Source of the DNA: Nitrosospira sp. Nsp11
GTDB lineage: Bacteria; Pseudomonadota; Gammaproteobacteria; Burkholderiales; Nitrosomonadaceae
Direction: 5' to 3'
Length of the DNA stretch: 64,000 nt
NCBI RefSeq assembly: GCF_900142705.1
Contig: NZ_FRBV01000004.1
Coordinates: 124,001 to 188,000 of the forward strand
Position numbers and translations under genes: made by a program. Of this stretch, positions 28,474-36,519 are shown in pieces (positions within the stretch are counted from its first letter, which is position 1; each line of letters starts with the position of its first letter). A model generated the notes under the pieces. The model was not told the origin of the DNA. It worked only from the letters and a program-made list of their open reading frames with translations, and did not search any database.

Positions 28474-28962
28474 ATGCGTATCCTCCTTTCCGCCTTTCTG
28501 TGCGCATGCCTTGGCGCCTGTGCATTCCAGCCCTTGACGAAGGGGAATCCCTTCGCCGCCCTTGACGAAAAGATTGCTTCCGATACCGTCAACCAGCTGG
28601 CGCGGCTCTATCCGCCGGCCAAGACGCAATTCAGCCTCGTGGTCTCCGAGCCTAAGAGTTTTGGGGCGCTGCTGTCGGACCGGCTGCGCGCCAAAGGCTA
28701 TGCGCTGTCCAAGAAGGAAGAGAAAACCCGGCTCATGCCGCCGGATACCTTTGGCGCGGTATTTTCGCCAAAGCCGGCAGACGAGGGCAATAAGCCGATA
28801 AAAACACCTGCGCCCGAGGGGATCGAGCTGCGCTACGTGCTTAACCATTCGGCAGACCTTTCCCGCGTCACGATGGTAGTCGGGCACGCCGTGCTGGCCC
28901 GTGCCTATCTGGTTGAAAATGGCGCCATTGCCCCTGCCGGGCCCTGGACGTTCAAGGAATAG
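28474..28962 (+). CDS. trbH: TrbH conjugal transfer lipoprotein
   Basis: This encodes 162 residues and is intact. The lipoprotein signal is MRILLSAFLCACLGACAFQP. The body (NPFAALDEKIASDTVNQLAR ... AKTQFSLVVSEPKSFGALL ... GYALSKKEEK) matches the TrbH family of IncP-like conjugation systems. It lies between trbG' and trbI' in the canonical order. With both neighbours broken, it is a stranded passenger. Confidence 0.85.
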   Translation: MRILLSAFLCACLGACAFQPLTKGNPFAALDEKIASDTVNQLARLYPPAKTQFSLVVSEPKSFGALLSDRLRAKGYALSKKEEKTRLMPPDTFGAVFSPKPADEGNKPIKTPAPEGIELRYVLNHSADLSRVTMVVGHAVLARAYLVENGAIAPAGPWTFKE

Positions 28963-28966
28963 CGCC

Positions 28967-29929
28967 ATGAGCCAGACAATGCCGCCGTCAGTCTCGCCCG
29001 GCCAGGCACGAACCGGAGGCGGGCGCCGGGTCAATAACCTGCCGCTGTACCTGATAGGAATAGTGGTGGCCATGTTCCTTCTCATCGTAGGATTGGTGGC
29101 AATGGACCGCGCCAACCCGAAGCAAACAGAAGAAGAAACACCCAGGCGCCAGGGCAACACGTCGCTCTTTGCCAAGGAACTTGCCGGGGACCGCCCGGAC
29201 GGGATCATTCCGGCATCCAGTCCCGTTCTTCCGGAAGAGGCCGATTTCCGTCCCGCGAATCCCGACCTGCCGCCGGTGCCGCCGTCCCTGCCGGTCTCTC
29301 AGCATCAAACGGACATGGAGCGCATCCGGCAAATGAAGCAGCAACGGTTCGAGGAAGCGCTGAAAGCCAAAACGGGCGTGCAAATAGCGCAGCCGGGCGA
29401 GCGTTCTGCGCCGGATGCGGCGAGTGGGCGGCCGGCGGACCTTCCCGCTAATACAGACCCGGCTGCGGTCTACCGTGCGCGGCTGGCGCAACTGCGAAAA
29501 GCGGGCATGGGTGGCAATGAGGATAGGGAAGATAGCGAAGAAACACGGCAAAGCGAATCCGGCCAGCCAGGAAAACCCAGAAATAATTACGAGGATTTCG
29601 CGGGCGGGGGAGAGGATAAGTGGAAGCTCGATTCGCGCCTGCTCCCGCCGCGCTTGCCCTATACCGTGCAAACCACTTTTGTGATTCCGGTCACGCTGAT
29701 CACCGGCATCAATTCCACGCTCCCGGGCAAAATCTTCGCGCAGGTCAGCCAGGATGTGTACGACACCGCCACGGGCAAGCACCTGCTTGTGCCGCAAGCC
29801 ACCAAGCTCGAAGGGGATTACTCCAGCGATGTGGCGTATGGACAGGCAATCGGAGCGTTCAACCCGGTTGTTTGTCGTTGCAGGGATCATGCTTGCGGTG
29901 CTTTCCGGCTGCGACCAGTTTCCATCTGA
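28967..29929 (+). pseudogene. trbI: 3'-truncated trbI (VirB10-like) with chimeric tail
   Basis: It begins normally at the ATG at 28967, four bases after the trbH stop: a cytoplasmic tail, one transmembrane helix (LPLYLIGIVVAMFLLIVGLV), a Pro-rich linker and the start of the VirB10 beta barrel (TVQTTFVIPVTLITGINSTL ... LLVPQATKLEGDYSSDVAYG). At about 29848 homology ends, and the last 25 or so codons are out-of-frame trbK sequence. TrbI is normally 420-480 residues; only 320 codons are left, so the core of the channel barrel is missing. The join marks a rearrangement. Confidence 0.85.
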
Positions 29930-30068
29930 GAAAAGGACAAAGATAGCCAACCCGACCTGTGAAGACCTGGGAAAGATAACCGATAACGCCGAGCACAAGG
30001 CACTATTGGAAAAATGCCCGGATTACATGGCAGGGGGGACAAAGAAAAGTGTCCCCTACGAATGGTAG
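29865..30068 (+). pseudogene. trbK: 5'-clipped trbK (entry-exclusion lipoprotein)
   Basis: The sequence RLFVVAGIMLAVLSGCDQFP is a TrbK lipoprotein signal whose first few residues are lost at the junction with trbI'. The rest (NPTCEDLGKITDNAEHKALL, then EKCPD) is typical TrbK. An internal ATG at 29889 could still start translation, but with a shortened signal. In IncP-like operons trbK lies upstream of trbL and well before trbG-H-I; here it follows trbI. Confidence 0.75.
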
Positions 30069-30073
30069 CGGCC

Positions 30074-30463
30074 ATGAGGACACCAGCAGGATCAACTCTG
30101 GTTATGTTGTCGGTGTTCTTCTGCACGGTGCTTTTTGTCTCTGAAGCGCATGCGGCGATTGAAAACGCAAATGTACTTGACGACATTTTATTTCGTTACA
30201 AAGGTGCGGCATCCGCGTGGGCCGCAACCATCACCGATCGAGCATCCTGGCTTTTCTGGCTATTGGTGGTCATCAGCATGGTATGGACATTCGGTTTGAT
30301 GGCGGTGCGGCGGGCCGATCTGGGGGAATTCTTTGCCGAATTCATCCGTTTTACAGTATTCACAGGCTTCTTCTGGTGGCTGCTGATTATCTGTAGCAAA
30401 ATGGTTCCATTTTGCTACACTGAAATGGACAACGCTAATATGTTGTTTTTTTTGTCTTCCTAG
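30074..30463 (+). pseudogene. trbL: 3'-truncated trbL (conjugation membrane protein)
   Basis: A signal-like start (LVMLSVFFCTVLFVSEAHAA) is followed by NVLDDILFRYKGAASAWAAT and two membrane helices (WLFWLLVVISMVWTFGLMAV, FTVFTGFFWWLLII), which is the N-terminal part of TrbL. TrbL homology ends at about 30391, exactly where a 13-bp inverted repeat begins. The remaining codons are foreign. TrbL is normally over 400 residues, so it has been cut by insertion of the resolvase element. Confidence 0.8.
30392..30419. repeat. 13-bp inverted repeat at the trbL break point
   Basis: TGTAGCAAAATGG (30392-30404) and its exact reverse complement (30407-30419) are separated by TT. It begins at the base where trbL homology ends and lies 88 bases before the resolvase gene. 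It could be the element end, or a subsite of the recombination (res) site bound by the resolvase. Confidence 0.65.
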
Positions 30464-31585: not shown

Positions 31586-31711
31586 GATTTTCACCATTTG
31601 CTTTTGTGAATGTGAATCCTCAACAAGAAGTTCTTCAGGATGCTTATATTACCGTTGCAATCTGATACAACGGTCTTTGATTTATAGCAATGGGATAATT
31701 TAGGAGATTCA

Positions 31712-32704
31712 ATGGCTGAGACAAGCAAGATCGCCAAAATGGCTAGTAAGCTCTCAGATGAACTCTTTGCGGAGTTCTTTTGGACAAAAGTGGGACCGGA
31801 AGACGCTAACTGGCCTTGCGAGGACCAAGCGCATCATGGCGTTACCACACACCCCGCAGACGTCGTATTTTGGTATGACGAACCATATACGTCAAAACGT
31901 ACATTCGTGCACTGTGATCTTAAAAGCTATGCTAAAGGGACAATAAATACGGCCACAGTCCAGGGCGCCCTGACGAGCTTGTGTAAGCAAGTTGCCTGCG
32001 CTGAGAAGAGCGAAGGTTGGCGAGATCTTTATATGCATGGCAACGTCACACCGGATGTCTGTGGTCTACTTTTTGTTTACAATCATGATGGTGGGTATGA
32101 CAAAGATTTCGCAGCCCATTTTGTCAATATTAAAAATGACAAGCTTCCACTTCCTAAAGGTTCTCGTGCATTCGTTTTGGGACCTAAAGACATCGCATGG
32201 CTCGACAATGTTCGGTATGAAATACGTCAAATGCGAGGGACCGCCGGCCCAACGGCCCTTCCCGGTGCTGCAAACTGCAAATATTTTTACCCACAGTTAG
32301 ACGGGCGTGCGAACCTGCACCCGGAGAAGGCACGGGCTGCCACCCTAGAAATGTTAACTTCGCCTTGGATTGTTCTCGAGTATGAGGTGGGGGCAAGTGC
32401 GAAGCGCGGATTCGTCGTGTTTTATCGCCGCTTGGGAGAAACGGAAGAAGAATTTATGTACTTGCTGGACTATCTCAGACATTACCAAGTGTTGGAGCAT
32501 GGAACAACGATCGCAATTAAGTCTTTTCAAGCAGCGGCGCATGCTACAACTACATTTCAAAAAGCGACGCAACGGTACATAGAGGGGCTTGGGGGCGGGG
32601 ATAATTCCGAGTTGGCAACTAAATTGCGTGCAATAAAATATTCAAAGATGACGCAGACGGTGAGCGATTTTTCTGAAATTGATTTGGGTATGGATTATGA
32701 GTAG
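31712..32704 (+). CDS. Putative PD-(D/E)XK nuclease, first gene of a three-gene operon
   Basis: This encodes 330 residues with an AGGAG ribosome binding site five bases before the ATG. After an N-terminal helix with Glu residues (KLSDELFAEFF), HHGVTTHPADVVFWYDE and FVHCDLKSYAKGTI supply Asp50 and Asp69-Leu-Lys71. That spacing is characteristic of the PD-(D/E)XK nuclease core; a helix with Gln follows (TATVQGALTSLCKQVACAE). The C-terminal 150 residues, with several aromatic strands, are unfamiliar. The gene overlaps the next by eight bases. Its place among mobile debris, the AT-rich composition and the tight overlap suggest a defence or toxin function, with this as DNA- or RNA-cleaving effector. 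This is inference. Confidence 0.7.
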   Translation: MAETSKIAKMASKLSDELFAEFFWTKVGPEDANWPCEDQAHHGVTTHPADVVFWYDEPYTSKRTFVHCDLKSYAKGTINTATVQGALTSLCKQVACAEKSEGWRDLYMHGNVTPDVCGLLFVYNHDGGYDKDFAAHFVNIKNDKLPLPKGSRAFVLGPKDIAWLDNVRYEIRQMRGTAGPTALPGAANCKYFYPQLDGRANLHPEKARAATLEMLTSPWIVLEYEVGASAKRGFVVFYRRLGETEEEFMYLLDYLRHYQVLEHGTTIAIKSFQAAAHATTTFQKATQRYIEGLGGGDNSELATKLRAIKYSKMTQTVSDFSEIDLGMDYE

Positions 32705-33827
32705 TACTGGTCAACTATACTTTGCCTCTAACAAAGAAATCCACGATCTTCTGCTTTCAGCAAAACTACGCATCACTGAGAGTGTTCTCCATGAATTGTT
32801 AAGAGACCGAGGGATTTTTTACCCTCCCAACGAGGAGCGCGAAGTTCTCGTAGACCGCTTATCAATTCTTCCGCATGATTATAAGGACATCTGCGGTCTT
32901 ATTGAGGCGACGGAGCAGGGTCACAGGGGAGAAAAGACAACCGCCGTGCGACTCAATTTGGCACTCAACGGCGAAGAACTAAAAGCGGTAATAACAACCT
33001 ATCAAACCGAGGCGACAACCGAGAAGGTTCATTCGTTCAAGAAAAGTGAAGACGAGTATTTCATGAATGTGGAGTATTCAGAATACGATTATTCTAAGAC
33101 GAAATTGGTGCAGAGACGGCTTCGTGATGCTTCGTTCGAGTTTATTCAAAAAGATGGCTGGACCGAGATTCGTTTCCCAGCGACGGAGAAAGGCCGTGCC
33201 ATTGTCGACAAGATTATTGGGAAAATAGAGGAGAAGAAGAAGATCCAAGTGAAGATTGAGGAAATTGAGTTGACAAACCTAACTGCATCCGAGGATAGAA
33301 CAACGTTTTTTACAAAGCTCATTTCTTCGCTGCCAAACTTTCCACTAGAAAACGTATCGCGGCTTAGAGTAGCTCATGCAGATGCTGCTAGCAACCCATC
33401 TTTAGATTTGGAAACCGAAGGAGAAGAAGAGGCGGAAGAGAAGATGCTAAGTGTTGTTCGTAAAGTAGCGTTGGCGGGGGATAATCTAGTTGCCTCATCA
33501 ATGTATAAAGAACTGAAGGCTGGAGGTTTCTTTATCACATCAATTACTTGGCGCGTAAAACAAAATATTGCCCCATATTCCATTGTGGAGTTTGATGCGG
33601 GTTTCGAGGACGGGCAGGATGCCAGGAAGTTTCGTTATTCCGTTCGTGGTGTGCTTCGTTTCAACAATGGCAAATATCCAAAACATTTCCGCGCCGCGGA
33701 AGACAAAGAAAAGGCAGCTTTACTTTCGATTCTCGAGGATACGGCGCGGAGTGTTTTGGTAAGTTTGCTTGTGAGTGGCAACATTCCCAAATTAGCCGAC
33801 ACGCCCCCTGAAGCGGTTGCGGTATGA
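32697..33827 (+). CDS. Second protein of the three-gene operon, unknown family
   Basis: This encodes 376 residues from the ATG at 32697, inside the last codons of the previous gene. Residues 15-60 form a helical module (LLSAKLRITESVLHELLRDR, GIFYPPNEEREVLVDRLSIL, then PHDYKDICGLIEATEQ) that resembles a winged-helix or SAP-like nucleic-acid-binding domain. The middle is a mixed beta region with an acidic, Glu-rich stretch (residues of about 235-250). The C-terminal part has strand-helix repeats. There are no Walker, TIR or protease motifs. It could be the sensor or DNA-recognition subunit. It ends with a four-base ATGA overlap with the third gene. Confidence 0.7.
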   Translation: MSSTGQLYFASNKEIHDLLLSAKLRITESVLHELLRDRGIFYPPNEEREVLVDRLSILPHDYKDICGLIEATEQGHRGEKTTAVRLNLALNGEELKAVITTYQTEATTEKVHSFKKSEDEYFMNVEYSEYDYSKTKLVQRRLRDASFEFIQKDGWTEIRFPATEKGRAIVDKIIGKIEEKKKIQVKIEEIELTNLTASEDRTTFFTKLISSLPNFPLENVSRLRVAHADAASNPSLDLETEGEEEAEEKMLSVVRKVALAGDNLVASSMYKELKAGGFFITSITWRVKQNIAPYSIVEFDAGFEDGQDARKFRYSVRGVLRFNNGKYPKHFRAAEDKEKAALLSILEDTARSVLVSLLVSGNIPKLADTPPEAVAV

Positions 33828-34534
33828 GGCGGCACCGTTGGTTCGCGGTTGATTGGCCTTTCTCCATGGACATTCTCGCAAAGAGGCTCAAAACAAAAGC
33901 ATTTCAAAGCGAGTTAACCGATGGTTTTGTGCTCGACCGAGTGCGGGACGAGTTTGTCGAGGCCCGCTTTGTCGAACGGATAGAATATGACGATACGGTT
34001 ACGGACCCCTTCGGTGCCGAAGTCGTGTTTCATCGCGTGGAGTATCGTCAGTGCGAATTTCGAGCCACAAAAGATGGCCCGGGACTAGAACTTCTCGATG
34101 CACCGCGAAGTATTCAAACGATGGTGAGTAGATTGCTGGAGATTTCTGACTTCTCGCTCGCTATAAATCCAGTTTCAGTCGACGTTTTAGCATGGGCTGT
34201 CGCAGTACAAAAACATCTCAGCACACCGGGAATGGTTGACTCGCTTCAGATTTCCGACCTTAGCCTAAACCTAGGAATTACTGTCAATGCTGTAGTCAAA
34301 GGATCGTCGGACGTTTTGGAAGCGACAACTATTTTGATCGGCGGCCGCAAGCATACGATAGAAAAGCTTCAACTCACTCTTCCTGGCGCCAAACAGTCAA
34401 GGATGATATTGACGAATGCAGCCGGAGTGAAACTTCACAAAGGTGCGCCGGACCAAGTGCTGGATGCAATTCGTCTGGCGCTCAGAAATTTGATTTTACG
34501 GAGTAATAAAAAGCCGATTTCTCGCTTCGCCTGA
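33824..34534 (+). CDS. Third protein of the three-gene operon, unknown family
   Basis: This encodes 236 residues, starting at the ATGA overlap with the upstream gene. It is soluble, with alternating charged strands (FVEARFVERIEYDD, VVFHRVEYRQCEFRAT) followed by two helical regions and a basic C-terminus (RLALRNLILRSNKKPISRFA). I find no motif of a known enzyme. Because it is translationally coupled to the two genes before it, its product probably works in the same complex. The transcript seems to end within the AT-rich stretch after 34534. Confidence 0.65.
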   Translation: MRRHRWFAVDWPFSMDILAKRLKTKAFQSELTDGFVLDRVRDEFVEARFVERIEYDDTVTDPFGAEVVFHRVEYRQCEFRATKDGPGLELLDAPRSIQTMVSRLLEISDFSLAINPVSVDVLAWAVAVQKHLSTPGMVDSLQISDLSLNLGITVNAVVKGSSDVLEATTILIGGRKHTIEKLQLTLPGAKQSRMILTNAAGVKLHKGAPDQVLDAIRLALRNLILRSNKKPISRFA

Positions 34535-34922: not shown

Positions 34923-34977
34923 GCCGCCTGCCGAAAAGCAGGCGGTTAGGCGCGGTCAAGGCCGCGTTGCGTTTTTT
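34923..34977 (+). terminator. Two hairpins with T-run
   Basis: Stem GCCGCCTGC / GCAGGCGG (34923-34945) is followed by stem CGCGG / CCGCG (34951-34966), and then GTTTTTTATT. The second, with the T-run at 34972-34977, is a plausible rightward terminator. It closes the resolvase/three-gene side and abuts the end of the leftward DUF2442 gene. Confidence 0.6.
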
Positions 34978-35305
34978 ATTTCAACCTCCATACTCCGTTT
35001 TTCTTGATCTCGTCGTGCATGGCGTCCGGTGCCAAGTCAAGTTCACCCGGCCAGGTTACCGCGCCAAGTTCGACGTACACCTGGGCGAATAAATCCGGGT
35101 CGGCCAGCATGGCAAAAACACCGGCATCGGGTGCGCGTACAAACTCGGACATATCGACTTCGCCTTCCAGCCCATCGATGAAGCGAACGTGTAGCCGATA
35201 GCCGTCAAGTGCTTCTACTGCCTTCACCCGCCAAGGTGCCTTTACTTGTATAGGCGGAACTACAGAAGAGGCGATATTTTCTTTGGTGATTGCCTGAGTT
35301 GACAT
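34976..35305 (-). CDS. DUF2442-domain protein
   Basis: This encodes 109 residues from the ATG at 35305 with GGAGGATT upstream. An N-terminal arm (MSTQAITKENIASSVVPPIQ) is followed by the DUF2442 fold: RVKAVEALDGYRLHVRFIDG, LEGEVDMSEFVRAPDAGVFA and GAVTWPGELDLAPDAMHDEI. DUF2442 proteins form pairs with DUF4160 proteins in what look like toxin-antitoxin modules. That arrangement is present here: the DUF4160 gene overlaps its start by 46 bases. Biochemical roles are not established. Confidence 0.88.
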   Translation of the reverse strand: MSTQAITKENIASSVVPPIQVKAPWRVKAVEALDGYRLHVRFIDGLEGEVDMSEFVRAPDAGVFAMLADPDLFAQVYVELGAVTWPGELDLAPDAMHDEIKKNGVWRLK

Positions 35306-35520
35306 AATTCCCAATCCTCCATGAGTTCTTCGCGGTGTTCCTGCGCCCATTCCAGCACCAGCGCCAGCGCCCGCCGTGACATGTTTCCTCTTAATACGCC
35401 TAAAGTGCGTATGTCGATTACTACTTCATCTTCCGCATAGACTGCGTGAAAATGCGGCGGTGAATGATCTCGCCAATACATCTGAATTATAATGCCATAA
35501 AACGTGCTTATGATTGGCAT
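35260..35520 (-). CDS. DUF4160-domain protein
   Basis: This encodes 86 residues from the ATG at 35520 (GGAGAGAGAA upstream). MPIISTFYGIIIQMYWRDHS, then PPHFHAVYAEDEVVIDI is the unmistakable DUF4160 start. WAQEHREELMEDWELCQ is its usual C-terminal block, extended by RQSPKKISPLL. Together with the overlapping DUF2442 gene it forms a probable toxin-antitoxin-like pair. It starts 17 bases after the ardC stop, so ardC, DUF4160 and DUF2442 may be one transcript. A decayed copy of the end of this gene plus the start of its partner lies at 56050-56219. Confidence 0.92.
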   Translation of the reverse strand: MPIISTFYGIIIQMYWRDHSPPHFHAVYAEDEVVIDIRTLGVLRGNMSRRALALVLEWAQEHREELMEDWELCQLRQSPKKISPLL

Positions 35521-35537
35521 GGGTTCTCTCTCCTTGG

Positions 35538-36428
35538 TTAAGCGGCTTTCTGTTCGCTTTGGTTGCCTTCCACTAAATCTATGATATAGCGGTGTGCCTT
35601 GCTGGCTTGGTTGGCTGCGGTGAATATTGCTCGTTTGTCGCTTTTCAGCACCTTCAGCCATGATTCGATATACCCGGCATGATTCGGGATCATTGATGCG
35701 GCAAAGCCAAGTTCCGCATTCAGGAAAGCACTTCCAAGCTCAGCAATCAATTCCTCGAAAGCGTAGGATTCTGTACCAAAGCGGCTGGCGAAGTCACGCG
35801 CTAAACGGTGCTTGGCTCCGGTCCAATGCGTCAGCTCGTGCAGGGCTACGCTGTAGAACTCGATCTCGGAAGCAAAGCGGTTTCGTTCCGGTAGGTAAAT
35901 CTCATCGGTCGAAGGACGGTAAAACGCTTTCTCGCCTTGTTCGCGGATAACTGCGCCTGAATGCCTTAAAACGCTCTCGGCTGCATCGATCTGCTGAAAC
36001 TCGTTAAGTGGCGCAATGACCTGTGGCTTTTCAATACCGTCTATCTGGTCAAGATTGAACAACCAGAACGGGCTGATTATCCGTGCTGATTCGGTTTTCT
36101 CGGTGTCGCCTTTGCCTGAATCGCGTTCAATCGTCTTGAAAAAAACACACGAAACGCTTTTTTCACCTTTGCGAACTTGGCCGCCCATGTCTGCGGCTTG
36201 CTTGTAGGTCAACCACCGGTCGCTTGAGTAGCCGTGAGTCATGGCCGCTGTCCACAACAAAAGCACGTTTACGCCCTGATAGGCTGCGCCGGTCTTGTGG
36301 TTGCGGGGCAAGCCGTTGCCGGTTCGTGCCCAAGTAATATTACTTTTTTTACCGCTTTCCAACATGGCGATAATCTCTTCCGTGATCTGTGCGTACATAT
36401 CTTTCTTAGGGGTGCTGGTAGTTTTCAT
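35538..36428 (-). CDS. ardC: ArdC-like antirestriction/ssDNA-binding zincin protein
   Basis: This encodes 296 residues from the ATG at 36428. The N-terminal half matches the ArdC ssDNA-binding domain (DMYAQITEEIIAMLESGKK, GVNVLLLWTAAMTHGYSSDR, WLTYKQAADMGGQVRKGEKS). The C-terminal half is a zincin metalloprotease-like domain with SVALHELTHWTGAKHRLAR, providing the HExxH zinc site and the third ligand region (AFEELIAELGSAFL). ArdC proteins enter with conjugative plasmids and protect incoming DNA from restriction. Here it supports the idea that 27.9-37 kb is plasmid or ICE debris. The gene looks intact. Confidence 0.92.
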   Translation of the reverse strand: MKTTSTPKKDMYAQITEEIIAMLESGKKSNITWARTGNGLPRNHKTGAAYQGVNVLLLWTAAMTHGYSSDRWLTYKQAADMGGQVRKGEKSVSCVFFKTIERDSGKGDTEKTESARIISPFWLFNLDQIDGIEKPQVIAPLNEFQQIDAAESVLRHSGAVIREQGEKAFYRPSTDEIYLPERNRFASEIEFYSVALHELTHWTGAKHRLARDFASRFGTESYAFEELIAELGSAFLNAELGFAASMIPNHAGYIESWLKVLKSDKRAIFTAANQASKAHRYIIDLVEGNQSEQKAA

Positions 36429-36519
36429 GCTTCTGGAATCCTCGCGATTTCGGGTTGATAAACACATCCTTTCGCTCGGACTTCCTCGGGCCGCCCTGGG
36501 GCGGCGGTGGTGGGGACAG

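What the first reader, a model, noticed from the sequence alone, without database searches (positions are those of the whole stretch)
31712..34534. Tight three-gene operon with a PD-(D/E)XK-like protein: candidate undescribed defence system
Three genes overlap by 8 and 4 bases, so their products are made in fixed ratio. The first carries Asp50 and Asp69-Leu-Lys71 in a nuclease-like arrangement. The second has an N-terminal helical module like a nucleic-acid-binding domain. The third is unfamiliar. The block is AT-richer than its flanks, lies among plasmid and transposon debris and follows an AbiJ-like fragment. That is the classic setting of a phage-defence island. Two-gene systems with PD-(D/E)XK proteins such as GAPS4 are possible relatives, but I cannot establish homology.
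Basis: partly seen in the sequence, partly recalled or inferred. Interest (0 to 1): 0.9.

Follow-up and report, generated by a model that had tools for sequence, protein, structure and literature searches.

The report
3HP phage defence: nuclease plus clamp
These three genes belong to a bacterial anti-virus system that is already known (3HP), and structure predictions suggest that it pairs a DNA-cutting enzyme with a DNA-gripping protein built like part of the machinery that holds our own chromosomes during cell division.

Summary
The operon is real; coordinates, overlaps (8 and 4 bases) and motif positions are right. It is not undescribed: the proteins match PADLOC Hp1, Hp2 and Hp3 (E 2.4e-58, 1.1e-35, 1.6e-17), and a homologous trio in a Vibrio phage is labelled Rst_3HP. 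A three-gene P2-phage system without clear domains protects E. coli against P1 (Rousset 2022); I take it to be 3HP. Of 171 sequences 163 hold all three genes, always in this order and strand. New here is the anatomy. Hp1 is probably a divergent PD-(D/E)XK nuclease: E3, D50, D69 and K71 are invariant in 97 of 97 non-redundant trios, though no fold match reaches E 0.001. Hp2's confident model matches kinetochore CENP-N/Chl4 and phage RdgC, domain by domain. Hp3 could not be folded; I infer that it is the RdgC/CENP-L-like partner. I propose a heterodimeric DNA clamp that recruits or licenses a nuclease. Membership in 3HP is nearly certain; the mechanism is inferred. No sequence-level link to CENP-N or CENP-L was found; common origin stays open.

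The parts
31702..31706 (+). Shine-Dalgarno-like AGGAG, 5 bases before the Hp1 start
   Evidence: read directly in the sequence
31712..32704 (+). Hp1, 330 aa, predicted PD-(D/E)XK-like nuclease; E3, D50, D69, K71 invariant
   Evidence: PADLOC Hp1 E 2.4e-58; PHROG 7059 E 1.7e-103; 97 of 97 conservation; AF2 pLDDT 91.3; weak Foldseek matches to restriction-like nucleases
32697..33827 (+). Hp2, 376 aa, helical module (12-72) plus two halves read as TBP-like; CENP-N/Chl4- and RdgC-like model
   Evidence: PADLOC Hp2 E 1.1e-35; PHROG 6531 E 9.4e-82; AF2 pLDDT 91.4; Foldseek PDB and BFVD
33824..34534 (+). Hp3, 236 aa, fast-evolving third subunit; probably the RdgC/CENP-L-like partner of Hp2 (inferred)
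   Evidence: PADLOC Hp3 E 1.6e-17; PHROG 5850 E 4.4e-35; depositors of one of two filamentous phages call a homologue 'RdgC-like exonuclease' ('hypothetical'); no structure made here

Best explanation
The trio is a member of the Rst_3HP anti-phage system. SHOWN: family match of all three proteins, constant gene order, invariant nuclease-type residues in Hp1, a confident CENP-N/RdgC-like model of Hp2. INFERRED: Hp2 and Hp3 form a heterodimer with the RdgC / RexA / Chl4-Iml3 type of fold, joined by an extended beta-sheet, that straddles or encircles double-stranded DNA. The Hp2 helical module, with near-invariant basic residues R38 and R48, adds DNA contacts, as the pyrin module of CENP-N does. 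Hp1, a PD-(D/E)XK-type nuclease, is recruited or switched on by the loaded clamp and cuts the phage DNA. What the clamp tells apart (free ends, an uncircularised genome, replication or recombination intermediates) is not known; incoming linear P1 DNA before circularisation is my first guess.
For: PADLOC and PHROG matches; record label Rst_3HP on a homologous trio; a P2-hotspot three-gene system protects against P1 (PMC9122126, section 3 part 3), and homologous trios lie between the portal and replication genes in a P2-like Klebsiella phage and on an E. coli plasmid record with P2-type genes. 163 of 171 sequences hold the trio, 163 of 163 in the same order and strand; in 97 non-redundant trios every gap is <= 50 bases. 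Distances between the three proteins correlate (rho 0.73, 0.49, 0.55; at most 0.18 in 200 permutations). In 398 genomes of the phylum Hp1 and Hp2 were each found in the same 3, the own genome included. Hp1: E3, D50, D69, K71 in 97 of 97, on a helix and strands as the fold would have them; of the 50 Foldseek rows shown (of 1064), 12 have probability 0.44 or more, and 11 of these are MspJI, R2, Cap4, EndoMS, Can2 or a Pyrococcus repair endonuclease (restriction-like nature of these recalled). Hp2: 8 of the top 10 PDB matches are CENP-N/Chl4 or Iml3 chains (E 4.4e-5 to 3.2e-3, prob 0.98-1.00); 5 of the top 10 viral matches are named RdgC or recombination-associated protein (best E 7.4e-7). Published: Chl4/Iml3 resemble RdgC and TBP (PMC4080450, passage); lambda RexA, a phage-exclusion protein, has the RdgC/Iml3/Chl4 fold and binds DNA (PMC11077077, passages).
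Against: No Foldseek match of Hp1 reaches E 0.001, and its best ranks by E-value are mostly low-probability non-nucleases. Hp2 matches have low TM-scores by query length (0.21-0.28 for the kinetochore chains, 0.32-0.38 for the named RdgC-type proteins) and rmsd of 9 A or more, so the domains agree better than the whole arrangement. Profile comparisons give nothing firm: Hp2-RdgC P 0.017, 0.021 and 0.038 (0 of 100 column shuffles and 5 of 100 block shuffles as good), Hp3-RdgC P 0.031, 0.28 and 0.068, while an implausible pair, Hp1-CENP-N, scores P 0.017, so these values are at noise level. Hp2-CENP-N P 0.22, Hp3-CENP-L 0.26. Known relatives score no better (0 of 6 reference pairs below P 0.04). 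Hp2 against Hp3 is not significant. Hp3 has no model. The Pfam CENP-L match of one of 90 Hp3 proteins looks like chance. Hp2 of the window is acidic (pI 5.6; helical module net charge -5). RexA DNA binding is not strictly needed for exclusion (PMC11077077, abstract text).
Confidence: 0.6

Rival explanations
1. Abortive infection: Hp2:Hp3 sense a phage product or DNA state and release or activate Hp1, which then cuts host and phage nucleic acid and kills or stalls the infected cell.
For: Effector nucleases such as Cap4 and Can2 (collateral action recalled) are among the weak fold matches of Hp1. Hp2 also resembles part of RnlA (7aex prob 0.97; 6y2p, titled RnlA-RnlB toxin-antitoxin system, 0.80).
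Against: Nothing direct. In the 163 complete loci no gene of the trio is missing, which fits both readings.
Confidence: 0.25
2. Interference without cutting: the RdgC-like clamp blocks recombination, circularisation or replication of incoming phage DNA, and the nuclease site is accessory.
For: RdgC reduces RecA-catalysed strand exchange and binds DNA as a ring-shaped dimer (PMC11077077, passages); the Hp2 model resembles phage RdgC.
Against: E3, D50, D69 and K71 of Hp1 do not vary in 97 of 97 trios, which a dispensable site would not be expected to show.
Confidence: 0.1
3. Not defence: a maintenance or superinfection module of phages and plasmids.
For: Many copies lie on phage, plasmid and viral-contig records (8 phage records, 21 plasmid records, 89 viral-contig relatives).
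Against: A P2-hotspot three-gene system, which I take to be this family, was validated against P1; DefenseFinder lists Rst_3HP among its systems, mostly on prophages (PMC9090908, passage).
Confidence: 0.04
4. A new system related to GAPS4.
For: Both would have a PD-(D/E)XK protein (GAPS4 recalled).
Against: Matches of all three proteins to Hp1, Hp2 and Hp3; three genes, not two.
Confidence: 0.01

Closest known systems
Rst_3HP (PADLOC Hp1/Hp2/Hp3; Rousset et al. 2022)
   Same: All three proteins, gene order, tight spacing, mobile-element setting
   Different: Identity to the trio of an E. coli plasmid record (L005) is 36, 25 and 21 percent for Hp1, Hp2 and Hp3; the window copy lies among plasmid conjugation genes and is untested against phage
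CENP-N:CENP-L (Chl4:Iml3) of the inner kinetochore
   Same: Hp2 model aligns with CENP-N/Chl4 (for instance 316 columns, gaps included, against a 318-residue human chain); helical module first; a partner of about Iml3 size is encoded next door
   Different: No sequence similarity detected; four helices against five in the pyrin module (PMC5777823, passage); low TM-scores; nuclease partner; Hp3 fold not shown
RdgC and lambda RexA
   Same: Hp2 model matches phage RdgC; RexA is a phage-exclusion protein with the RdgC/Iml3/Chl4 fold (PMC11077077, passages)
   Different: They are homodimers and no N-terminal helical module is described in the passages seen; lambda rexA stands beside rexB, E. coli rdgC between ykiD and mak
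PD-(D/E)XK nucleases (MspJI, Cap4, EndoMS)
   Same: Motif E...D...D-x-K on helix and strands; weak fold matches
   Different: Window Hp1 has no Pfam match, its family only scattered ones (25 families, at most 5 of 90 members, best E 0.0058), and no PDB sequence match by profile

Membership tests
Rst_3HP | Hp1, Hp2 and Hp3 profile matches | tested here: met
   E 2.4e-58 (2-328 of 330), 1.1e-35 (6-353 of 376), 1.6e-17 (1-188 of 236)
Rst_3HP | Three adjacent genes in the order Hp1-Hp2-Hp3 on one strand | tested here: met
Rst_3HP | Protection against phage | not testable with these tools
   shown for a three-gene P2-phage system against P1, not for this copy
PD-(D/E)XK nuclease | Invariant acidic and lysine residues in the motif | tested here: met
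   E3, D50, D69, K71 in 97 of 97
PD-(D/E)XK nuclease | Restriction-like core fold | tested here: inconclusive
   topology fits; Foldseek matches to such nucleases only at E above 0.001; no coordinates at hand to check the site
PD-(D/E)XK nuclease | Metal-dependent cleavage | not testable with these tools
   needs protein
CENP-N / CENP-L | Helical module, then CENP-L/N homology domain, then dimerisation domain (Hp2) | tested here: met
   order of elements and Foldseek prob 0.98-1.00 with low TM-scores; layout of CENP-N from PMC5777823 passages
CENP-N / CENP-L | Sequence-level homology | tested here: not met
   no significant profile match (CENP-N and CENP-L as single human sequences, so low power); none of the 6 places that Pfam CENP-L matched in 49 genomes lies at an Hp3 gene, judged by contig position
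CENP-N / CENP-L | Heterodimer of two proteins of the same fold | not tested
   Hp3 not folded (cap reached); no complex prediction available
RdgC / RexA fold | Globular plus dimerisation domain of this fold | tested here: met
   Hp2 against phage RdgC-type protein, E 7.4e-7, prob 1.00; TM 0.35 and rmsd 10.5 A, so domain-wise only
GAPS4 | Two-gene system with its own profiles | not testable with these tools
   Hp1 matched only the Hp1 profile in PADLOC at E <= 1; whether that library holds GAPS4 was not checked

The most novel reading that the evidence does not exclude
Hp2:Hp3 is a prokaryotic cousin of the CENP-N:CENP-L heterodimer, not just a protein of the same broad fold: the DNA-gripping part of the eukaryotic inner kinetochore and the sensor of an anti-phage operon descend from one two-gene clamp, which in bacteria still works with a nuclease.
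Probability: 0.12. Interest if true: 0.93.

Novelty: new member of a known kind. Interest (0 to 1): 0.52.

Why it matters
A three-gene P2-phage system, which I take to be 3HP, was described in 2022 as having no clear predicted domain. In the search listings that I saw no paper gave a mechanism for 3HP by title or abstract; most of the listed papers were not opened, and subscription papers are largely not held. A nuclease plus a CENP-N/RdgC-like clamp turns it into a testable machine, names the residues to change, and would place a second phage-exclusion system beside lambda RexA in a fold that also builds the inner kinetochore. If Hp3 proves to be the CENP-L-like half, bacteria hold a heterodimer of the same design as CENP-N:CENP-L.

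Tried and rejected
Rejected: 'undescribed system'. Rejected as evidence: one Pfam CENP-L match among 90 Hp3 proteins, E 0.0074 (which member was not identified), because Pfam CENP-L matched 6 places in 5 of 49 genomes, none at an Hp3 gene by contig position (one lies just past Hp3 if contig C23 of G078 is that of L047), and 3 of 14 control genomes rang. Not followed: Pfam DUF4518 in 15 or 16 of 90 Hp2 proteins. Rejected: an apparent match of the start of Hp3 to the start of RdgC (P 0.031), not the best match any more with trimmed or deeper alignments. Hp1 to PDB by sequence: one chance-level row with the single protein, none with the profile. Looked for Hp2 without Hp1: none in 398 genomes at E <= 0.01. 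RexA set small (6 sequences). A search with the wrong family (RexB in place of RexA) gave nothing and was not used. No paper with the word GAPS4 was among the 8 rows listed of 204. Rows dropped before counts: 171 sequences to 163 with three genes, to 160 with three unsplit genes (L001, the window's own copy, and L062 and L069 dropped), to 97 at 90 percent Hp1 identity; 90 of the 97 went into the alignments for structure, because loci of the fetch of an annotated region are not on the list of accepted sources. Yeast Chl4 and Iml3 sequences were not used, so the CENP comparisons rest on single human sequences.
Full report
WHAT IS THERE. Three genes run on the + strand at 31712-32704, 32697-33827 and 33824-34534, overlapping by 8 and 4 bases. 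An AGGAG lies 5 bases before the first ATG. The block has GC 0.473 against 0.538 for the window. The window is part of a 3.2 Mb genome in 35 contigs (G000, contig 15), in which the first gene occurs once. Upstream lie parts of conjugation genes (TrbI, TrbK, TrbL) and a resolvase. The 'AbiJ-like fragment' has no match at E <= 1 in PADLOC, Pfam or NCBIfam, only PHROG matches at E 0.08 and 0.15.

WHAT IT IS. The proteins match PADLOC Hp1, Hp2 and Hp3 (E 2.4e-58, 1.1e-35, 1.6e-17) and PHROGs 7059, 6531 and 5850, all of unknown function. Pfam has no match at E <= 1 and NCBIfam one, to Hp2 at E 0.066, far under its cut-off. A homologous trio in Vibrio phage 1F53_PE003 carries the notes Rst_3HP__Hp1, Hp2 and Hp3. 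DefenseFinder lists Rst_3HP among systems encoded in majority on prophages (PMC9090908, passages). Rousset et al. 2022 (PMC9122126; abstract, passages, and section 3 part 3; [quoted passage not shown] That this is 3HP rests on the name, on the hotspot and on the gene number (the legend of their Figure 5 explains HP as hypothetical protein); the main text does not use '3HP', and I did not compare accession numbers. Homologous trios sit in that region, between portal and replication endonuclease genes, in a Klebsiella P2-like phage and an E. coli plasmid record. In E. coli the trio of the latter is rare: 18 of 5426 complete genomes have a close DNA match, 17 over at least 80 percent of it.

HOW WIDESPREAD AND HOW FIXED. 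The genome collection gave 117 relatives of Hp1 (80 kept) and the viral collection 89 (80 kept). By record titles they come from several phyla (Pseudomonadota, Acidobacteriota, Verrucomicrobiota, Cyanobacteria, Campylobacterota and others; phyla assigned by me to titles, some of them of metagenome bins). With nine annotated records, the window and the window's own duplicate locus, 171 sequences were examined: 163 hold all three genes, and in 163 of 163 the order and strand are the same. The 8 others end early: 7 have at most 131 bases left after the last gene found, one of these (L089) with a shortened Hp1; L074 has 330 bases in which the Hp2 profile finds nothing better than E 0.05, so it may have a diverged or different second gene. 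Of 97 non-redundant trios, Hp1 and Hp2 overlap or touch in 70, Hp2 and Hp3 in 57, and no gap exceeds 50 bases. One redundant copy has 1326 bases between Hp2 and Hp3 (by its spacing, L146). Distances between the proteins go together (rho 0.73, 0.49, 0.55; maximum of 200 permutations 0.18); shared descent alone would also give this. Among 398 genomes of the phylum, Hp1 and Hp2 were each found in the same three, the own genome included.

HP1. In 97 of 97 trios E3, D50, D69, L70, K71 and S72 do not vary, nor do W24, C36, H47, P48, Y55, P58, C96, L120, F121, N124, P158 and P194 (same list in the 90-row alignment). The AlphaFold2 model (90 sequences) is confident (pLDDT 91.3, pTM 0.90): helix 2-20, strands 46-49 and 51-56 with D50 between them, strand 62-73 with D69 and K71, helix 80-97, strand 113-124. 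That order fits PD-(D/E)XK enzymes (established knowledge). Foldseek against the PDB gives no match at E <= 0.001, and the best ranks by E-value are mostly low-probability non-nucleases. Of the 50 rows shown (of 1064 matches) 12 have probability 0.44 or more: 11 are MspJI (0.75 and 0.44), R2 (0.69), Cap4 (0.60, 0.60, 0.54, 0.47), EndoMS (0.54, 0.47), a Pyrococcus repair endonuclease (0.47) and Can2 (0.44), all of which have restriction-like nuclease domains as I recall, and 1 is an ASFV RNA polymerase subunit (0.96). I read Hp1 as a divergent nuclease of this kind. I had no coordinates to check that the four residues meet. The invariant C36 and C96 (and H42, 100 percent but not in the list) might bind metal; not tested.

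HP2. The model is confident (pLDDT 91.4, pTM 0.85). DSSP gives four helices (12-72), then strand-helix-four strands-helix (81-181), then short strand and helix, then a second such half ending in a long helix (217-361). I read the two halves as TBP-type repeats. Of the top 10 PDB matches 8 are CENP-N/Chl4 or Iml3 chains: yeast kinetochore chains N and NN (E 4.4e-5, 2.8e-4, 3.7e-4), human CENP-N (2.1e-4, 3.1e-4, 9.5e-4, 2.2e-3) and Iml3 (3.2e-3), with probability 0.98-1.00 (human chains named Centromere protein N, yeast chain naming recalled). RnlA (0.97) and a TBP-like protein (0.90) follow lower down. In the viral library 5 of the top 10 are named RdgC or recombination-associated protein, best E 7.4e-7, the other 5 being uncharacterised. 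E. coli RdgC is not among the 50 PDB rows shown. TM-scores by query length are low (0.21-0.28 for the kinetochore chains, 0.32-0.38 for the named RdgC-type proteins), so the likeness is by domain. Near-invariant basic residues R38 (0.97 K/R) and R48 (0.99) lie in the helical module, although the module as a whole is acidic in the window (net charge -5); in CENP-N the pyrin module contacts DNA with R42, R44 and K45 among others (PMC5777823, passage). That the residues correspond is a comparison by eye.

HP3. Fast-evolving (identity to the window down to 10 percent), 211-240 aa. No model was possible (two predictions per session). The clues are indirect: the depositors of one filamentous phage call it RdgC-like exonuclease (those of a second, hypothetical), its size is near that of Iml3 (245 residues by the numbering), and its consensus can be read by eye as two halves of the same kind. 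Profile comparisons are not significant: with Hp2; with RdgC P 0.031, 0.28 and 0.068; with RexA, CENP-N and CENP-L P 0.73, 0.56 and 0.26. Noise reaches P 0.017 in the same call (Hp1 against CENP-N). The method finds nothing among RdgC, RexA, CENP-N and CENP-L either (0 of 6 pairs below P 0.04), although the papers report structural kinship among them, so this silence says little.

HOW IT MAY WORK. Chl4/Iml3 resemble RdgC and TBP (PMC4080450, passage). RdgC forms ring dimers on DNA; RexA and Iml3-Chl4 share the fold, dimerise through an extended antiparallel beta-sheet, and the Iml3-Chl4 horseshoe contacts centromeric DNA (PMC11077077, passages). By analogy Hp2:Hp3 should be a DNA clamp with an extra helical grip, and Hp1 the cutter that it positions or licenses. 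This would explain why three genes stay together. The trigger is unknown.

WHAT IS NEW. The system is known; the window holds a new member. The reading of Hp2 as CENP-N/RdgC-like and of 3HP as clamp plus nuclease I did not see in the listings of an open-licence library (searches; of the papers listed there I opened PMC9090908, PMC11291487, PMC4080450, PMC5777823, PMC7614391 and PMC11077077, passages only; PMC11291487 names 3HP in one list). The paper on kinetochore origins that I had in mind is not held. RexA already shows that a phage-exclusion protein can have this fold, which lowers the surprise. A specific common origin with CENP-N:CENP-L remains open.

Noticed in passing
window 28901-30463 (+): Run of conjugation genes before the resolvase: TrbI matching only part of its profiles, TrbK, and an N-terminal part of TrbL.
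   Followed up: no
window 35263-35661 (-), with 34976-35350 (-): DhiT-like toxin (NCBIfam E 1.8e-21, 76.5 bits, under the cut-off of 100) overlapping a small gene without NCBIfam match on the same strand: possible toxin-antitoxin pair near 3HP.
   Followed up: partly
window 35538-36467 (-): Gene 82 percent identical in DNA to one annotated as zincin-like metallopeptidase domain protein on a Nitrosospira plasmid; ArdC-type by my reading.
   Followed up: no
L003 and L009: Two filamentous Pseudomonas phages carry the trio near one end of their records, and both encode a DNA cytosine methyltransferase; a link to self-protection is possible but untested.
   Followed up: no
L074 8961-9314: Hp1 of a cyanobacterial bin followed by a reading frame that starts somewhat like Hp2 (FASDKN) but does not match its profile: possible variant second subunit, cut by the contig end.
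   Followed up: partly
L062 6173-6625, L069 8993-10106, L146: Extra Hp1 fragment upstream of a trio, an Hp2 split over two frames, and a wide Hp2-Hp3 spacing.
   Followed up: no
Hp2 family, alignment A5: 15 of 90 Hp2 proteins match Pfam DUF4518 at E <= 0.1 (best 1.6e-5; 16 at E <= 10); not explained.
   Followed up: no
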